Source of the DNA: Cerrena zonata
Lineage: Eukaryota > Basidiomycota > Agaricomycetes > Polyporales > Cerrenaceae
Reading direction: 5' to 3'
NCBI GenBank assembly: GCA_038087015.1
Contig: JASBNA010000075.1
Span: 1-64,000 of the forward strand
Length of the DNA stretch: 64,000 nucleotides
Shown: one piece after another, positions 1 to 23,432 of the stretch
How positions within the stretch are numbered: the stretch's first letter is position 1
Layout: every line of letters begins with the position of its first letter
The notes under the pieces: model-generated
The model's database searches: none
What the model was told of the DNA's origin: nothing
What the model saw: the letters and a program-made list of their open reading frames with translations, nothing else
Translations under genes and position numbers: made by a program

Positions 1-80
1 AAATTTTTGAGATGTCTCTCACAATAAACCAGCATACATCAGGACTCCTTCAAAGATACTCTGTACTGATACTCTTCACA

Positions 81-260
81 GTCAGCTTCAGTCAGCTTCA
101 GTCAGCTTCAGTCAGCTTCAGTCAGCTTCAGTCAGCTTCAGTCAGCTTCAGTCAGCTTCAGTCAGCTTCAGTCAGCTTCAGTCAACTTCAGTCAACTTCA
201 GTCAGCTTCAGTCAGCTTCAGTCAGCTTCACAGTCAGCTTCAGTCAGCTTCACAGTCAGC
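81..260. repeat. 10-bp minisatellite
   Basis: Fifteen consecutive copies of the decamer GTCAGCTTCA run from 81 to 230; two of them carry GTCAACTTCA. Degenerate copies with small insertions continue to about 290. The period is 10 bp, not a multiple of three, so the open frames that cross it are repeat artefacts. No gene is seen on either side within 800 bp. Function unknown. Confidence 0.9.
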
Positions 261-290
261 TAAAGTCAGCATTAAAGTCAGCTAAAGTCA

Positions 291-16800: not shown

Positions 16801-18240
16801 ATTTAAAGAACCGGCATCACCTTGAGTAGCAACTTCATTTGATAAAATAGAAATTCTTGAAATCTTATCAAATAATAAATCTGAATCAAAAGATGATTCA
16901 TTAATATATAATAAGAATGATTCGATTGAAGCTTGTAAATCCGCAACCAACTTCATTGAAACCAACCCAGTTGGAGAAACCAACGATTTTAATTCATGAT
17001 CACTAAAAGATAAATTAGCCAAATCAGCAATAATAATATTTGATCTAGAATCTTCATATCTTTTTTGCCATTTGATGACTTCATTTTTCAATTGAGTTAT
17101 TTCATTAGTATTTAAAGATAAATTAGGATTAGAATTAATATTTGGATTATCTAAATGAGATAATTTATCATAAAAGATTTCCAATTGTTTTTTCAAATCA
17201 TTTGATTGATCAAAAGAGTTTGAAGGAGATGAAGATAACATATTTTTGGAATTACGATTAATATCTTTTGAATGAGAATTTTTTAAAGATTGATTTTCTA
17301 ATCTTAATGAAGCATTTAGTGATTTTAAATTATCTAATTCTTTTAAAACGTTTTCATCGGGTTGAGAATTTCTTTTCCAATTTTGTTTTTCTATTAGAAG
17401 GTTTTCAATTTCATTATTTAAAGATTTTTTATCATCAATTAATTGATCTAATTCATTTTGTAAAGATTGATGATTATTTGATAATTCTTGATAGCTATTT
17501 TTAGATTCATTTAATTCAGTTTTCAATTCAGTAATTAATTTATCCATTTTAGAGCCTTCTTCCATTAATAATTTAACATCTTGAGATTGTGAAGATTGAT
17601 TACTATGAAGAGAACGTTGACTAATATTTTTATTTTGTAAATCATTTTTCAAATCTGCAGCAGCTTTATTTTCATCATCACCTTCTTCTTCTTCTTCTTC
17701 TTCTTCATCACTTGACCACGTTAAATTTGCTTTGGTAGGCACAACTGTCTTAGGTTGTATGTTAATTGATTGATTTTGATTATGCAGATGATTTGAATTT
17801 AATGATTTAGTTGGCGAAGAATGATCAATTGAATCTTGATGATTATGATTAGAAGATTCTGATTTAGTAGGACTTGTATTAGAAGGGGTATGTAAATCTC
17901 TTCTTTCAATTTCGTAAGAAATATCAGAAACCAAATCTTTAAATCTTGATTGAGGTAAAGAAGCTAATTTATGTCTTGCTTGATTTCTCTTTGGGTGGAA
18001 CGATGATTTAGGTAATAAGAAATCTGGTTCACCTCTCGATTCATCAATTCTTCTTTTCAATTCATCATAAACATCGGTACTTAATTCTTTAAATTGAGCA
18101 GGGGATAATTTCAATAATTTTTCTCTGGCCTTGATGGCTCGATTACTATTTGATTGAGATCTTGAATTCAGATCATCCGATATGTCAAGAAACTGCTTCA
18201 ACACCTTATAGTGATGAGCCAAATCATTTTCACTGGACAT
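13816..18240 (-). CDS. SPA2: Polarisome scaffold Spa2
   Basis: Spa2 organises the polarisome at sites of bud and hyphal growth, binding formins, Pea2, Bud6 and MAP-kinase-kinases. The 1474-aa product has two N-terminal SHD1 (Spa2 homology/GIT) repeats, near residues 35-70 (AREKLLKLSPAQFKELSTDV) and 85-118 (ARHKLASLPQSRFKDLVSDI). These are followed by an acidic Ser stretch, a coiled coil (about 225-320), a conserved central block around 385-520, a very long Ser/Asn/Pro-rich linker with many S-P sites, an Ala tract, and a well-conserved C-terminal domain from about residue 1290 (MAAATFNIDLFDIDDPDN). The linker contains degenerate SPLN-type repeats at roughly 14560-14920. The S-P sites suggest control by cyclin-dependent or MAP kinases. 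Start is ATG at 18240. Confidence 0.93.
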   Translation of the reverse strand: MSSENDLAHHYKVLKQFLDISDDLNSRSQSNSNRAIKAREKLLKLSPAQFKELSTDVYDELKRRIDESRGEPDFLLPKSSFHPKRNQARHKLASLPQSRFKDLVSDISYEIERRDLHTPSNTSPTKSESSNHNHQDSIDHSSPTKSLNSNHLHNQNQSINIQPKTVVPTKANLTWSSDEEEEEEEEGDDENKAAADLKNDLQNKNISQRSLHSNQSSQSQDVKLLMEEGSKMDKLITELKTELNESKNSYQELSNNHQSLQNELDQLIDDKKSLNNEIENLLIEKQNWKRNSQPDENVLKELDNLKSLNASLRLENQSLKNSHSKDINRNSKNMLSSSPSNSFDQSNDLKKQLEIFYDKLSHLDNPNINSNPNLSLNTNEITQLKNEVIKWQKRYEDSRSNIIIADLANLSFSDHELKSLVSPTGLVSMKLVADLQASIESFLLYINESSFDSDLLFDKISRISILSNEVATQGDAGSLNSNEQSVCLRESTSHALTATRYFALYSSLLPKIVIDRALSEICFTLCDLVSVSKLNSESINSTIIDSSIIQANKNLTNNNKKKDEVMVKPLRITNKLRESQSNDSNSPKNLYLNTNDSFNKRSVSNSSQASPLNNGDSYKVSPQSASYNGSTDNQPSRSLENKALTNQNLSNFQNDKAPNGEYIASPVASLLNKQASPNRSINNNNNSSPSKNGNYSDVGETPTRIGVLPNSISPLRDNEYSPIKNKVRSSDASFDKSPKGSNSVKSLASKFSESENNSPQELSPRGKAYLQSKVGDSISNKSSPTSRGIFDRVKKFESPTEESIKKESPFRSSPSQSIASRRSSLGLEGDESVGQIKNSPSQQFLVNRSSLEVKDSKDTLLSEPFVAGGNANSKDISGSANNGESSNARNSTTAASPAAAAAAAASATAAATAATTDTPDSGTSTQSTAPALKPRGLFQSIRDRFTSDNQSKPAEDNTSEISDNDRNEVSTEKATSTAETTPAKDTDMDQYDYNDSQETSPSERSEQAFFQSFKGKLTPHENGENFGASRAPSSAASDITIRHDDSNPGNENNYSNPYMNFQNRSVNGSSLNESPVKSGNTEANKADEPGSSNSHVGSHKDETDYAESKNSSPLNSAAHASPLKANGASPLKSSAQASPMNNGAQVSSPLNTGAHIPSPGQSSQSQTSPLNVGGANIESPAQSSQSQTSPLNIAGGSSIRSPAQSQQSIGNDSPLNVAPPNAGAFDDASSIFSGPTPDSPSQAKSPSNVPEKASPISKSVGFASSPPTQHEAKDYSSSEEEEEEDDDEEEEDDDEVEARQRQEYRKSMAAATFNIDLFDIDDPDNTLTHVLLYLEHQTVQVISTIQSLLSAIKKPDATRGELREKSKAITIVISQMAEATNTSMNQTRNFQLKKHGSWVVTSLEDCNHRMNILCRPNSDKNDADFADKNFKQRLAGISFDIAKCTKELVKTVEEASLKEEISNLNAKLSHDDLT

Positions 18241-19098
18241 TGCAGCTGGACTATTGGGAAACTAACAAAAAAGAAAGGAGAAAAATATTTTGTTAACAGA
18301 AAAACTTTTCCCTTGGTGGAATTAGACGCGCTCGACTAATTGAATTTCAAAAGGAGTTGAAACAAGTAACCTTGTAAATGAAGTAAATGAACGTGCTTGA
18401 ACGTAAATGAACGTTAACTGGAACTAACTGGAAAATAAATGAATGTAAGGGAAAAGTACCGGGAATAATGAAAGACTAGGAATAATGAGTAATCTTGTAT
18501 ACGGCGGCTATTCAATATATATTAAACGTACAAGATGGCTTGTTTTTCACACACGTCACCCATATATTATCACCCACAATACAACGGTAGATCTAATGCT
18601 TTCTTTGAAAGAAAAGAAGTGGTTATTTTATGGAAAACACGATGGAACTGTTCTTTTGGCTATAAAAAAAGGAGGGTTGTTGTTTGTTTTAAAAAAACAG
18701 AAAAAAAAAAAACACTGAGGAAAAAGAGAAAAAAAGGTTGTTTCAATCCACAAATAAGTGGAAAAAACAGTCAAATCGCGTTAAAAGCTTAATGGAATTT
18801 ATGAAATCTGTAATTAAAGACGTAGGATCCTTGTCTTGTTGGCTGTAATGTTTGGCGAGAGAGGACATGGGCCTAGATTTCCTATAGAGGACATAGAGTA
18901 GATCTGCCGGCATCGGTTAGCATTAATAATATGGACGAATACGAAGGTGTTTTAACTTTATATGTAAATAGACCAAACGACAAACCTCGGAGAGAGGTAT
19001 GGAGGTAAGGCCTTGGAAATAAGTAGGGCTAATAATTACGTTATTGATGAGGTTATTATTTTATTCTATGTACATAAACTATTTACTTGATCTATTAA
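18241..19098. other. Intergenic stretch upstream of SPA2
   Basis: No gene is supported. Near 18370-18450 short direct near-repeats of GTAAATGAACGT occur in the presumed SPA2 promoter. A 77-codon ATG frame at 18485-18718 has no recognisable motif, ends in a poly-Lys artefact from A runs, and is not annotated. The rest holds nothing I recognise. Confidence 0.5.
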
Positions 19099-19806
19099 TT
19101 ATTGGCTATTTTTTTCAACGATACGGGCAGTTATATCTTCAATCGAAGGATTTGCATTTAAGAATTTTTCATGGAGAAACTGTTCAGCAATTTGTTTACC
19201 GTGGGTGAAAGTGACAGCCCCAACAAGAGCGTAAATCATTTGGGCACTGATTCTTAATTCACCGCTTGATTCGAAGGATAAATCGTGGTTAAAAGATTTC
19301 CAAAACATAATGGTGTTTAGTTGGTTTTGCTTAGCGAAAAGACCATTACTTAATCTTGCAGTAAGTTCTTTGGCCATTGGTGAGCCCAACGGATCTAAGT
19401 TCAATCCATTAATCGTCATTTCATTAGGGGTTTTGGTACTAGTAACGTATTTGGCAAAAAATAAATTCATGATCTTACTTCCCATAACCCCTAATTTTTC
19501 GTTGAATGGTTTGATCCCATTACCAAATGATTTATGGGTTATCACTTGTAATGCTAATTCATCGCTTATCCCGTACTTATCGCCCAAAAATCCTTTTATG
19601 TATTTTAAATTCTCTTCACTTATTCCATATTTGATTCCTGTATTGGTGGTGAAGGCTTGTTCCGGGTCTCTTTTCAACCCTGCAACACGGGTTCCACTGT
19701 GTAAGTAGATGCTTCTGACCTGGGTCAACCTTGGCTGGGCAAGTATCTTTCGTATACTCATTTTTATGGTATCAAGCTGTCTTATTAAATTGCAATGGTT
19801 GCCCAT
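19099..19806 (-). CDS. MRPL15: Mitochondrial large-subunit ribosomal protein mL57 (MrpL15)
   Basis: Nuclear gene for a mitoribosomal protein with an RNase III-like fold that has lost catalytic residues. Seen: a basic, acid-poor N-terminus suitable as a mitochondrial presequence (MSIRKILAQPRLTQVRSIYL, starting at an internal ATG, 19761), then the RNase III-like core with KYGISDELALQVITHKSFGNG, LGVMGSKIMNLFFAKYV, and a second helical part ending before ARIVEKNSQ. The first ATG (19806) gives 235 aa; the ATG 45 nt downstream fits a targeting peptide equally well. Length agrees with the family (about 250). An AAAAAATTTTT element and a Rap1-like site lie upstream. Confidence 0.85.
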   Translation of the reverse strand: MGNHCNLIRQLDTIKMSIRKILAQPRLTQVRSIYLHSGTRVAGLKRDPEQAFTTNTGIKYGISEENLKYIKGFLGDKYGISDELALQVITHKSFGNGIKPFNEKLGVMGSKIMNLFFAKYVTSTKTPNEMTINGLNLDPLGSPMAKELTARLSNGLFAKQNQLNTIMFWKSFNHDLSFESSGELRISAQMIYALVGAVTFTHGKQIAEQFLHEKFLNANPSIEDITARIVEKNSQ

Positions 19807-19846
19807 TGATATTTTTCACTATTGGAAAGAAAAAAAAATCAGCTTC

Positions 19847-19891
19847 AAAAAATTTTTGATTATATAAGCGAAAAATGAGGTGTACGGGTGT
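19847..19891 (-). promoter_or_regulatory. MRPL15 promoter elements: RGE-like and Rap1-like sites
   Basis: AAAAAATTTTT at 19847-19857 lies about 45 bp upstream of the MRPL15 ATG. It matches the AATTTT-type rapid-growth element that CTG-group yeasts are reported to keep before mitochondrial ribosomal protein genes. GGTGTACGGGTGT at 19879-19891 (reverse complement ACACCCGTACACC) matches the Rap1 consensus and the core of Candida telomere repeats. A TATATAA lies between them. Binding is inferred only. Confidence 0.5.
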
Positions 19892-20031
19892 TGTGAGTAA
19901 AACCGAGAACGCAGAGTAAATTGAAGGACTGAAAGACTATAGTTTTAATTTAGTTGAGCAGCAAGATAGTACTTAGAGTATATATGCTAATATCTAACTT
20001 GAGAAAGCATTAATATACATGAGCCTTTGGA

Positions 20032-21126
20032 ATGGAAAATATTAAAATAGAAAGTATTACAACAGGTCTAAAAGAGTGGTTGTACTTATCCTCAAATAAT
20101 TGAAGGAAAGAGCACTACAATAGTTTAGATACTCTTTATATTGTTTAACCAAGCATTGACTACATGTTGGTCAATGCGTTCGTGGAAGTAAGACCAAGTG
20201 GGAAGAGTATCAACACTGACAAAATCGACTAGTTTTAGATCCCACTTGACTTTAAATAGACCATAGGATCACCACAACATAAAGACCTCAAAGCTATTTC
20301 AAATAGCCTTCTTGATTCTATACGCTAATTTGGTTAGTTGCTTGAGATTTTACGGTGATGATGGGCAGATTAACCATCACCCAGCGCGCTATGGTACCAG
20401 GGGGTTGGGGATTAGTTTGTCACGGCCTTGGGCGATGCTTGGACCTTGGTTTGGATGAGCGTGCTGGCATTTGGGTATTTTAGCGAATGGTTAAAGCGTA
20501 GAGAGCAGGGATACGCATATCTGTCATACCTAGATAACCAAGGTAATGGTCAGTACAAAGTAGAAATGGATTTACTTTAGAAGATGGATGGTACCATTTA
20601 CAACTAGGGGATCACCGTGTTAATTGAACATAGCTGAACTATTAAAGCATAATGCTGGTGATGTGTTTGTATATAGGCAGTAATGGTCTTGTCTACCCGG
20701 GATAACAACCTATGCCTATACATGCATCATATAGATCACCAACTCATGGATTTGAATTAGATTTTTGGCCCCAGGCTCCGATTTAGATAGTGGTATAGAC
20801 GGCAAGCGGGACGACCCAAACGGATACTGCACAAACGGGAGGTCTATGGTCGCCGACTGTCTATCTTCGTGCTGATACAGAAAGGGCCATTACTTTATTA
20901 AGCGATGCCGTAGAGGAGCGTGTATGCACTGGGGGATGAATTTTTATCATGACTACGTGGGTTCAGATCGCAGGAACATGCTACTAAAGTATATGATCAC
21001 ACTGAGACTGATGATTCATTGCGTAGTTGGGATTACGTATGGGCTAGTCTATCTTTTTGCCATTACCGTCATGAAGCTGCGAACAAATACAGAGTCTATA
21101 GGTACGTTATCCCATACAAGTCTTAG
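20032..21126 (+). pseudogene. Decayed protein gene, possibly an endogenised totivirus-like capsid
   Basis: This gap is unusually rich in protein-like translation, broken among all three plus-strand frames. Blocks are: 20149-20229 (27 codons, e.g. MLVNAFVEVRPSGKSI), 20348-20455 (GDDGQINHHPARYGTRGLG), 20416-20577 (54 codons, e.g. EWLKRREQGYAYLSYLDNQ), 20577-20624 (LEDGWYHLQLGDHRVN), 20706-20936 (HGFELDFWPQAPI, then ERAITLLSDAVEERVC) and 20977-21123 (49 codons, e.g. SLRSWDYVWASLSFCHYR). The last ends at a stop at 21124-21126. Stops within blocks are mostly TAG/TGA/TAA that single substitutions could have made. The stretch also seems less AT-rich than nearby spacers. Faint similarity of the later blocks to the yeast L-A-type coat protein suggests a fossil of an RNA virus of yeast, but this is weak. 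It could equally be another dead gene. Confidence 0.5.
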
Positions 21127-21750
21127 TAATACAACACATCTATATAGTCGTGACCTTGCGTATGTGAAGTGAGAGGCTTGGAGGCGTCATCAACCAAAAT
21201 TATAATTGTTGTAAGTGGACAAACTAAGCATGTTGCGATAAATGGTATAATATAATTGGCAATATATTTATTCACTATAAATAAAGAAGCTGTTTTCAAA
21301 TGGTTAATTTCTAGAATAAATTTCTATAAAACTGTTTAACTTCCAACTTTATTTATAATATTTTTGGTCTCCTCTTTCATATGCTTCCGTTCATTGATTA
21401 AAATAATAATTACTCTTCTTTCATGTTAATTATTCTCTTTTCATTATTCATCTGCCTTCGGGCTGGTTTCAATTATATGATAACCCTCTTATATTGTGGC
21501 TCTCTAACAATAACACACCAAATTTCACAGGTATACGCTTATCACTCTTCACTAATTGGTTGTAATCATTCCTTTGTCTTATTCATAATTATTCAGTTAT
21601 ACCTTTTTTGGTTGCAAATTTTATTTCTCATTTTTTCTCATTCTGAAATATACTTAACGTTTTCTAAATTGCATTTTCACTTGACCTAATCTGTAATTTT
21701 GTTGTAATCTGTAAATTGTCACAATCACTGGTAGATCTCGAAACGAGAAC
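21127..21750. other. AT-rich spacer after the relic
   Basis: AT-rich DNA between the relic and ROK1. An 88-codon ATG frame at 21423-21689 translates to hydrophobic, T-rich-derived sequence without motifs and is not annotated. Nothing else is recognised. Confidence 0.5.
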
Positions 21751-21777
21751 TGTACGGGTGAAAATTTCCACGATGAG
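21751..21777 (+). promoter_or_regulatory. ROK1 promoter elements: Rap1-like, RRPE-like and PAC
   Basis: Three elements stand together 57-83 bp before the ROK1 ATG: TGTACGGGTG (21751-21760, core of a Rap1-type site), AAAATTTC (21761-21768, near the RRPE AAAAATTT) and CGATGAG (21771-21777, the PAC core, bound by Dot6/Tod6-type repressors). RRPE plus PAC is the established signature of ribosome-biogenesis genes in budding yeasts, which agrees with the downstream gene. Confidence 0.6.
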
Positions 21778-21833
21778 CTTAGGATATTTTGAGCTTCATC
21801 TTGCAGTCTCTTCTTACTTCAGCAAAGACAACC

Positions 21834-23432
21834 ATGGATATCTTCAGAATTTTGTCGAGAGGAGCATCCTTAAAGAAGAGTAAGCAAGTTACCACAGATT
21901 ATGCCCTTCCATCCAAGTCACAAAATCAGGATAAGGTGAAAAAAACGGGATCAATTAGAGATGAAGTCGATAAAGAAACTGATTTTTTCCATTTGAAAAA
22001 CCATTCGAAACCAAAGGAGGTTGTGGAAACACCCAAGGAGGAGGAAGAAGAAGAAGAAAGTGTCCCTCCACCAAAGATTGCCAGTAGTGAAGATGCAAAT
22101 AAATTGCGTGCTTTGAATAGATCGAAAATCACTGGTGATGATATACCTTTACCCATTGGATCATTTGAAGATTTAGTAAGTCGTTTTAAGATTGACAAGA
22201 AACTATTGAACAACCTTATAGAAGGTGGATTTGTAGAACCCACTCCAATTCAATGTGAAAGTATTCCTATATGTCTTGAAAATAGAGACATGATTGGTTG
22301 TGCCCCAACTGGTTCCGGTAAAACTTTAGCATTTTTAATACCATTAATTCAAGCCATATTAATTTCTCCAAATAATTCTAAGAACTATGGTATAAGAGGA
22401 TTGATAATATCACCGACTAATGAATTGGCAGTACAAATCTTTCAAGAATTAGAAACATTAACAAAGGGTAAAAAATTAAAAATTGGTATTTTATCAAAAC
22501 AATTAGCAAATAAAATTAATAATAAAATTATAAATTCAAATAAATTTGATATTTTGGTGTCAACTCCTTTAAGATTAATTGATCTTATCAAGAATGAAAA
22601 TTTAAATTTATCAAAAGTTGAACAATTAGTAATTGATGAAGCTGATAAATTATTCGATCAAGGTTTTGTTGAACAAACCGATGATATTTTATCTAATTGT
22701 ACTTATCCAAAACTAAGAAAGTCAATGTTTTCTGCTACAATTCCTTCTGGTGTTGAAGAAATGGCTAATTCAATAATGAAGGATCCAATTAGAGTAATTA
22801 TTGGTCATAAAGAAGCTGCATCAAATACAATTCAACAAAAATTGGTCTTCACTGGTAACGAAGAAGGTAAATTATTAGCAATAAGGCAAATGATTCAGGA
22901 AGGTGAATTTAAACCTCCAATTATTATTTTCTTACAATCTATCACCAGAGCAAAAGCCTTATTTCATGAATTATTATATGATAAATTAAACGTTGATGTA
23001 ATTCATGCTGAAAGAACCCCAAAACAAAGAGACGATGTCATCAAAAGATTTAAAAATGGTGATATTTGGGTTTTAATTACTACTGATGTTATTTCTAGAG
23101 GTGTTGATTTTAAAGGAGTTAATTTAGTTATTAATTATGATGTCCCTCAAAGTGCTCAAGCTTATGTTCATAGAATTGGTAGAACTGGTAGAGGAGGTAA
23201 AATTGGTAAAGCAGTAACTCTTTTCACAAAGGAAGATGACAAAGCAGTTAAACCAATCATTAACGTTATGAAACAATCCGGTTGTAATGACGGTTTTAGC
23301 GAATGGATGGAAGATATGAATAAATTATCAAAAAATGATAAAAAAGATATCAAAAAACATCAAATCAAAAGAAATCAAATTAGTACAGTTCCAAAAGTTA
23401 TGAAAAATAAAAGAAAGAGAAAGAAGAAATGA
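21834..23432 (+). CDS. ROK1: DEAD-box RNA helicase Rok1
   Basis: Rok1 is an ATP-dependent RNA helicase of the nucleolus needed for 18S rRNA maturation and snR30 release. The start at ATG 21834 gives [15 protein letters not shown], the family N-terminus; the frame stays open upstream to a TTG at 21789. Helicase motifs in order: PTPIQ (Q motif, about residue 148), APTGSGKT (motif I, 170), PTNELAVQ (Ia), TPLRLID (Ib), DEAD written as DEADK (II, about 280), SAT (III), IIFLQS (IV), [11 protein letters not shown] (V) and [10 protein letters not shown] (VI). The 532-aa frame ends in a Lys/Arg run at 23432. A -1 frame from there to 23476 reads [15 protein letters not shown] and could be the true tail if a base is missing in the A/G-rich run. 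Confidence 0.92.

What the first reader, a model, noticed from the sequence alone, without database searches (positions are those of the whole stretch)
20032..21126. Protein fossil between MRPL15 and ROK1, possibly an endogenised yeast-virus capsid
About 1.1 kb of apparently non-coding DNA reads as protein-like blocks in all three plus-strand frames, with single-base shifts and substitution-type stops. The longest blocks are 54, 46 and 49 codons, in different frames, ending at a common stop at 21124-21126. This is unlike the homopolymer shifts in neighbouring live genes: here TAG, TGA and TAA stops also sit inside the blocks. The last block (SLRSWDYVWASLSFCHYR) and the one before it faintly recall part of the yeast totivirus coat protein, and such integrated totivirus-like genes are known from Debaryomyces and Scheffersomyces. 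The assignment is weak; that a gene died here is better supported.
Basis: partly seen in the sequence, partly recalled or inferred. Interest (0 to 1): 0.75.

Follow-up and report, generated by a model that had tools for sequence, protein, structure and literature searches.

The report
Dead toxin-like gene inside a repeat
A yeast chromosome carries the decayed remains of a gene for a secreted-looking protein that resembles yeast killer toxins, sitting inside a scattered repeat; it does not look like a fossil virus coat, and it adds one more example to a known kind of dead yeast gene.

Summary
Window 20058-21260 is a single-copy, 41% G+C insertion in a ~650-bp dispersed repeat; four of six other copies examined cross the site, and all four lack it. 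It holds a frame-broken relative of a ~300-residue protein family: a gene on contig C33 of this assembly, a broken copy on C63, a Hyphopichia burtonii protein 88% identical to the C33 one, and P0005 (300 aa, unnamed source). A profile of three relatives, run on 2389 six-frame pieces of the window, ranks four insert pieces first, plus strand, in family order; 0 of 1000 shuffled inserts reach the score. No totivirus-coat match was found (one search's control was silent). Both long relatives have a hydrophobic start, KR (Kex2-like) sites, N-glycosylation motifs and two Cys pairs; P0005 also has a hydrophobic stretch after the first pair. This resembles the published layout of K1-superfamily killer preprotoxins (PMC13211469), so I infer a dead killer-toxin-like gene. 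Its fold could not be modelled and its activity is untested.

The parts
19878..20057 (+). Left half of a ~650-bp dispersed repeat (begins TGTACGGGTGTTGTG)
   Evidence: Matches C74, C60, C58 and C113 copies at 71-87% identity
20058..21260 (+). Single-copy 1203-bp insert, absent from 4 of 4 repeat copies that cross the site; 41% G+C against 34-35% for the window
20053..20057 (+). Possible left copy of a 5-bp target-site duplication (AGTAT)
   Evidence: By eye from the alignment to empty sites; weak: AT-rich and one mismatch to the right copy
21261..21265 (+). Possible right copy of the 5-bp target-site duplication (AATAT)
   Evidence: By eye from the alignment to empty sites; weak
20458..20568 (+). 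Fossil block 1, family profile positions 80-115 (frame 1)
   Evidence: 7.5 bits; P0005 aa 90-124, E 0.001 on its own
20494..20499 (+). KR dibasic pair kept in the fossil, aligned with KR of P0005 (100-101) and of C33
   Evidence: Alignments; reading as a Kex2 site is inference
20712..20765 (+). Fossil block 2, profile positions 177-194 (frame 3)
   Evidence: 3.6 bits, weak alone but in order
20762..20860 (+). Fossil block 3, profile positions 194-227 (frame 2)
   Evidence: 11.2 bits
20804..20809 (+). Second KR pair kept in the fossil (KRDDPNGY), aligned with KR of P0005 (206-207)
   Evidence: alignment
20897..20974 (+). Fossil block 4, profile positions 249-274 (frame 2, after an in-frame stop)
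   Evidence: 13.1 bits; P0004 aa 141-166
20980..21048 (+). Fossil block 5, C-terminal family motif, profile positions 278-298 (frame 1)
   Evidence: 19.9 bits; 19 of 22 residues identical to P0004
21261..21733 (+). Right half of the dispersed repeat
19099..19806 (-).
   Evidence: PF14622 E 1.3e-21
21834..23432 (+).
   Evidence: PF00270 E 6.7e-42

Best explanation
Shown: 20058-21260 is an insertion into a dispersed repeat between two housekeeping genes, and it contains a plus-strand gene of a ~300-residue protein family, broken by at least three changes of reading frame and an internal stop, with the order of the family's segments kept. Inferred: the family is a secreted killer-toxin precursor of K1-superfamily layout (signal peptide, alpha part with a membrane-active helix, gamma linker, beta part, cut at KR by Kex2). 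The gene was probably carried to this place as a cDNA or DNA copy by the cell's retroelement machinery, and then decayed. It has no function as a protein now. While alive it would have made a secreted toxin that permeabilises competing yeasts.
For: Family and decay: the last block matches a C33 gene (E 0.12 in 55 Mb; 14 of 16 residues). That gene led to P0004 (88% identical, Hyphopichia burtonii NRRL Y-1933) and P0005 (37%). These match other, unused parts of the insert in order: P0004 aa 141-166 (28.5 bits), P0005 aa 190-273 (35.8 bits) and P0005 aa 90-124 (25.8 bits, E 0.001); the joint E-values 9.7e-12 and 4.5e-8 include the last block. The profile ranks four insert pieces first among 2389 window pieces; 0 of 1000 shuffles reach the chain score, and the chain without the last block (35.4 bits by subtraction) is still above the shuffle maximum of 9.2. 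Insertion: joined repeat flanks align across the junction in 4 of 4 copies that reach it, of 6 examined, and the insert is single copy. Layout: hydrophobic start, KR sites, three N-glycosylation motifs and 2+2 cysteines in both long relatives; the two KR pairs that fall in recognisable blocks are kept in the fossil. Published K1-superfamily traits are similar (PMC13211469). Mobility: the C33 gene also lies between fragments of abundant repeats, and retroelement capture of such genes has been proposed in print (PMC7888664).
Against: No Pfam, NCBIfam or PDB match names the family a toxin (one hit of E 0.21 to a short unrelated toxin model lies below its cut-off and is taken as chance). C33 lacks a hydrophobic 19-mer above the cut-off at the place of the central helix, and one of its three boundaries has a single R. 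Of the two beta-part cysteines the fossil keeps the first (block 3) but not the second in the frame of block 5. The structure model is too poor to use (pLDDT 33.6); its search of viral models gave no match at E 0.001, and no PDB fold search was run. The 5-bp target-site duplication is imperfect. No poly(A) tail is seen at the right end of the insert. The C63 copy shows no repeat flanks, so retroelement transport does not explain all copies. No clean empty site was found for the C33 copy. No tRNA gene lies near the fossil or within the loci of the repeat copies; the surroundings of the C33 and C63 genes were not scanned for tRNAs.
Confidence: 0.72

Rival explanations
1. A dead copy of a secreted, Kex2-processed protein family with a role other than killing (for example an adhesion, mating or cell-surface protein) that moved in the same way.
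For: No direct homology to any named killer toxin was found; signal, KR and N-glycosylation sites are general secretory marks; C33 shows no strong hydrophobic stretch at the place of the central helix.
Against: The joint pattern in P0005 (Cys pair just before a hydrophobic stretch, KR boundaries, Cys pair in the last domain) and the few scattered, broken copies fit killer toxins better (PMC13211469, PMC7888664).
Confidence: 0.22
2. A cDNA copy of a killer dsRNA satellite (a toxin gene from an RNA element) that was integrated, rather than a duplicate of a chromosomal gene.
For: Chromosomal toxin genes in other yeasts have been explained so (PMC7888664); the insert has about 230 bp before and 200 bp after the gene that match no other DNA found in the assembly, and its G+C is above the host's.
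Against: The GAAAAA motif of such satellites is absent from the plus strand of the insert and from the 500 bp before the C33 gene; the related genes on C33 and C63 also have ~41% G+C, so the composition marks the family, not the route.
Confidence: 0.2
3. Endogenised totivirus capsid gene.
For: Such genes are published for Debaryomyces and Pichia (Scheffersomyces) stipitis (PMC2805616, passages).
Against: No coat or polymerase hit (controls of 19 and 25 silent); the block in question belongs to a ~300-residue family with a hydrophobic, signal-like start, far shorter than a totivirus capsid of ~680 residues (length recalled).
Confidence: 0.02
4. Chance: non-coding DNA that only looks protein-like.
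For: Open lengths and codon usage are unremarkable.
Against: Ordered homology over five blocks, 0 of 1000 shuffles.
Confidence: 0.01

Closest known systems
KKT (K1-like killer toxin) genes and pseudogenes of Saccharomycotina (PMC7888664)
   Same: Small multi-copy families of secreted preprotoxin genes with many pseudogenes; two non-subtelomeric copies were explained by retroelement-borne insertion
   Different: No sequence homology to KKT could be tested here; the main text does not mention Hyphopichia; no tRNA gene near the fossil and no GAAAAA motif
K1 superfamily killer toxins, especially the K2, K45 and K74 families (PMC13211469)
   Same: In P0005: order of hydrophobic start, Cys pair, hydrophobic stretch, KR boundaries, and a beta part with two cysteines
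   Different: Fold not obtained; direct sequence relation not tested; the paper's homolog tables (supplements) could not be read, and its main text does not mention Hyphopichia
Hyphopichia burtonii HYPBUDRAFT_145857 (P0004), hypothetical protein
   Same: Same family; 88% identical to the C33 gene; shares the C-terminal motif with the fossil
   Different: Annotated protein is only 193 residues, lacking roughly the first 110 of the family
Totivirus capsid-like genes of Debaryomyces and Scheffersomyces (PMC2805616)
   Same: Foreign-looking genes stranded in yeast chromosomes
   Different: Different protein; no coat match here

Membership tests
The C33/P0004/P0005 protein family | Ordered sequence homology along the protein | tested here: met
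   Five blocks in order, 55.3 bits, 0 of 1000 shuffles
The C33/P0004/P0005 protein family | Conserved C-terminal motif (KVY.HTETHDSW..DVW) | tested here: met
   19 of 22 residues identical to P0004
K1-superfamily killer preprotoxin | N-terminal signal sequence | tested here: inconclusive
   Hydrophobic N-terminal 19-mers in C33 and P0005; no signal-peptide program at hand; in the fossil only a weak match (E 0.26)
K1-superfamily killer preprotoxin | Hydrophobic helix in the alpha part with a Cys pair at its N-terminal end | tested here: inconclusive
   P0005: C58/C74 then hydrophobic 74-92; C33: C55/C69 but no 19-mer above the cut-off there; helix only in an unreliable model
K1-superfamily killer preprotoxin | Kex2-type basic sites between domains | tested here: met
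   KR at 100, 130, 206 in P0005; KR at 92 and 129 in C33, where the third boundary has a single R; two KR pairs kept in the fossil, the third falls in an unrecognised stretch. Motif only, no cleavage test
K1-superfamily killer preprotoxin | Cys pair in the beta part | tested here: met
   C226/C276 in P0005, C228/C278 in C33; in the fossil the first is kept, the second is not seen in the frame of block 5
K1-superfamily killer preprotoxin | Alpha/beta sandwich fold | tested here: inconclusive
   Model pLDDT 33.6; viral fold search best E 0.069; PDB fold search not run
K1-superfamily killer preprotoxin | Sequence homology to a known killer toxin | tested here: inconclusive
   None found in Pfam, NCBIfam or PDB, but those libraries may hold no K1-type model
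K1-superfamily killer preprotoxin | Kills other yeasts | not testable with these tools
   Bench assay needed
Endogenous totivirus capsid | Match to LA-virus_coat (PF09220) | tested here: not met
   No match in six pieces or three whole frames; none in the assembly (control silent)
Endogenous totivirus capsid | RdRp-like gene in the same genome | tested here: inconclusive
   No RdRP_4 match in the assembly, but the control was silent too
Retroelement-borne insertion | Target-site duplication | tested here: inconclusive
   AGTAT/AATAT, 4 of 5 bases, AT-rich

The most novel reading that the evidence does not exclude
Hyphopichia and relatives carry an undescribed killer-toxin family within the K1 superfamily that is spread by capture into retroelement debris, perhaps from a dsRNA satellite still present in some yeasts. 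In this strain every chromosomal copy found is broken, so the genome records a finished toxin arms race.
Probability: 0.3. Interest if true: 0.6.

Novelty: new member of a known kind. Interest (0 to 1): 0.42.

Why it matters
How yeast killer-toxin genes reach chromosomes is an open question in the papers read here. An insertion with empty sites elsewhere in the same genome, plus related copies on two other contigs, gives a testable case. If the family proves toxic, it adds a toxin group in the Debaryomycetaceae. It also removes a supposed fossil capsid from the list of viral integrations.

Tried and rejected
Rejected readings: totivirus coat; structured RNA (four sub-threshold matches at E 0.47-6 in 18240-21800, none inside 20058-21260); other DNA copies of the insert (none found); relatives in viral contigs (patterns matched 5, 5 and 30 stretches, none confirmed). 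Protein searches with two of the three single-frame readings found nothing (1311 and 34 candidates); the answer came only through the C33 gene.

Led nowhere: structure model of P0005 with P0004 and its viral fold search (407 matches at E up to 10, none at 0.001). The repeats beside the C33 gene gave no clean empty site, and five ORFs from them gave no Pfam family over its cut-off. Paper searches (listings of 7, 1 and 12 papers) showed no account of a killer-toxin gene in Hyphopichia; 'Hyphopichia' does not occur in the main texts of PMC7888664, PMC12875307 and PMC13211469.

Circularity guard: C33 was found with the last block, so the profile leans on that block; blocks 1-4 were not used to find any relative, P0005 matches blocks 1, 3 and 4, and the chain score without the last block still exceeds every shuffle.

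Full report
What is there. The window is the first 64 kb of contig C75 of a 55.5-Mb, 171-contig assembly. Between an RNase-III-like gene (19099-19806, minus) and a DEAD-box helicase gene (21834-23432, plus; Pfam) lie 2 kb without a long ORF. Its outer parts, 19878-20057 and 21261-21733, are the two halves of one ~650-bp dispersed repeat. Searching the assembly with the C74 copy gave 11 matches at 7 places, the window included (such counts are lower bounds). Joining the window's two halves and comparing with six other copies, four of six align straight across the junction (68-73% identity, with small gaps); the other two (C58, C113) do not reach it. So 20058-21260 is an insertion of 1203 bp. 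It is single copy in the assembly and 41% G+C, 44% in its middle, against 34-35% for coding and other DNA of the window. A 5-bp duplication (AGTAT/AATAT) may flank it; this is weak.

By open length, hardly: 8% of 2000 shuffles have an equally long plus-strand open stretch, and codon usage does not resemble the host's. Homology settles it. The 57-codon block at 20953 hit one other place in the assembly, C33:401059-401115, at E 0.12, 14 of 16 residues being identical. There the minus strand holds an ORF of 294 codons from its ATG. That protein's search of 5.8 billion sequences returned two relatives at E up to 10: P0004, a 193-residue hypothetical protein of Hyphopichia burtonii NRRL Y-1933 (88% identical), and P0005, 300 residues from an unnamed source (37%). 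Against window 19801-21500, P0004 gives two ordered matches (joint E 9.7e-12; the last is 19 of 22 residues). P0005 gives a match to aa 190-273 and one to the last block (joint E 4.5e-8), and a separate one to aa 90-124 (E 0.001). These E-values are for a search of 1.7 kb with composition correction off.

Control. A profile of C33, P0004 and P0005, run without filters on all 2389 six-frame pieces of at least 15 residues from the whole window, puts four insert pieces first (E 3.2e-5, 0.0031, 0.02, 0.27), all plus strand and in family order; the next, at E 0.86, lies elsewhere. The best chain of insert pieces scores 55.3 bits; 1000 dinucleotide shuffles of the insert reach at most 9.2. The C33 sequence was found through the last block, so that block is not independent; the chain without it (35.4 bits by subtraction) still exceeds every shuffle.

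How it is broken. Following the family order, the frames run 1, 3, 2, 2 after an internal stop, and 1. The stretch between profile positions 115 and 177 and the N-terminal ~80 positions are not recognisable with confidence (one P0005 match to aa 11-37 at 20316-20396 has E 0.26).

Other copies. Searches with the C33 protein and with P0005 found C33 and C63 only, besides the window found by its own block. C63 carries pieces for profile positions 26-76, 108-207 and 263-293 in two frames. The C33 ORF ends before the final residues of P0004, which continue there in another frame. So 3 of 3 copies found in this assembly have interrupted frames, but assembly errors were not excluded. The C33 gene lies between fragments of abundant repeats (63 matches for the 2.2-kb stretch, itself included); the C63 copy does not (1 match, itself).

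What the protein was. No family library names it: the best Pfam match of the C33 protein has E 0.046 and of P0005 E 0.21, both below cut-off, and NCBIfam gives none. P0005 has a hydrophobic start, Cys 58/74 before a hydrophobic stretch at 74-92, KR at 100, 130 and 206, N-glycosylation motifs at 138, 146 and 172, and Cys 226/276. C33 has a hydrophobic start, Cys 55/69/228/278, KR at 92 and 129, and three N-glycosylation motifs, but no hydrophobic 19-mer above the cut-off at the place of the central helix. Creagh et al. 2026 (PMC13211469; outline, sections 2.1, 2.5.2 and 2.7 and passages read) describe K1-superfamily toxins as delta-alpha-gamma-beta precursors cut by Kex proteases, with a central hydrophobic helix pinned by a disulfide at its N-terminal end and, in the K2, K45 and K74 families, disulfides inside the alpha and beta parts. 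The layout of P0005 agrees; I infer a killer-toxin-like precursor. Two KR pairs are kept in the fossil at 20494-20499 and 20804-20809; of the beta cysteines it keeps the first, while the second is not seen in the frame of block 5. The fold could not be modelled (pLDDT 33.6); its order of helix and strands would fit the published core but must not be leaned on.

How it got here. Fredericks et al. 2021 (PMC7888664; passages and section 22 read) report 14 KKT pseudogenes and suggest capture by retrotransposons. The single-copy insertion with empty sites elsewhere, and the repeat debris around the C33 copy, fit this but do not prove it. The GAAAAA motif that they link to dsRNA satellites is absent from the plus strand of the insert and from the 500 bp before the C33 gene.

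Species. The 88% match to H. burtonii suggests a Hyphopichia (Debaryomycetaceae); this rests on one protein. The assembly is larger than expected for one yeast and may be mixed (inference); that C33 and C63 belong to the same organism as C75 was not tested.

Verdict. A real, decayed gene; not a capsid on the evidence at hand; a new member of a known kind, namely killer-toxin-like pseudogenes of yeasts, with the toxin assignment inferred.

Noticed in passing
L035 8722-9466 (G000:C74 end): Array of 21.8 copies of a 34-bp unit (AGATGTACGGAGGTTTTTGCCCTAACTAAATACT) at the contig end, probably the telomere repeat; one copy of the 650-bp repeat ends 600 bp from it.
   Followed up: partly
window 19878-20057 and 21261-21733: The ~650-bp dispersed repeat begins with TGTACGGGTGT, like a Rap1 site (recalled), and shares TGTACGG with the telomere-like unit; no two of the 7 copies found lie closer than 19 kb, so none forms a paired element.
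   Followed up: partly
L033 4563-5447 and flanks: The C33 family gene sits between fragments of abundant repeats; relatives of these repeats hold short ORFs with zinc-knuckle-like and LINE-like looks (by eye; Pfam gives nothing over cut-off).
   Followed up: partly
L034 4268-4951: Broken copy of the same family on C63, without repeat flanks.
   Followed up: partly
window 61-290: The contig begins in a tandem array of CAGTCAGCTT-type units.
   Followed up: no
window 20058-20290: About 230 bp of single-copy insert upstream of the fossil gene match nothing found; origin unknown.
   Followed up: no
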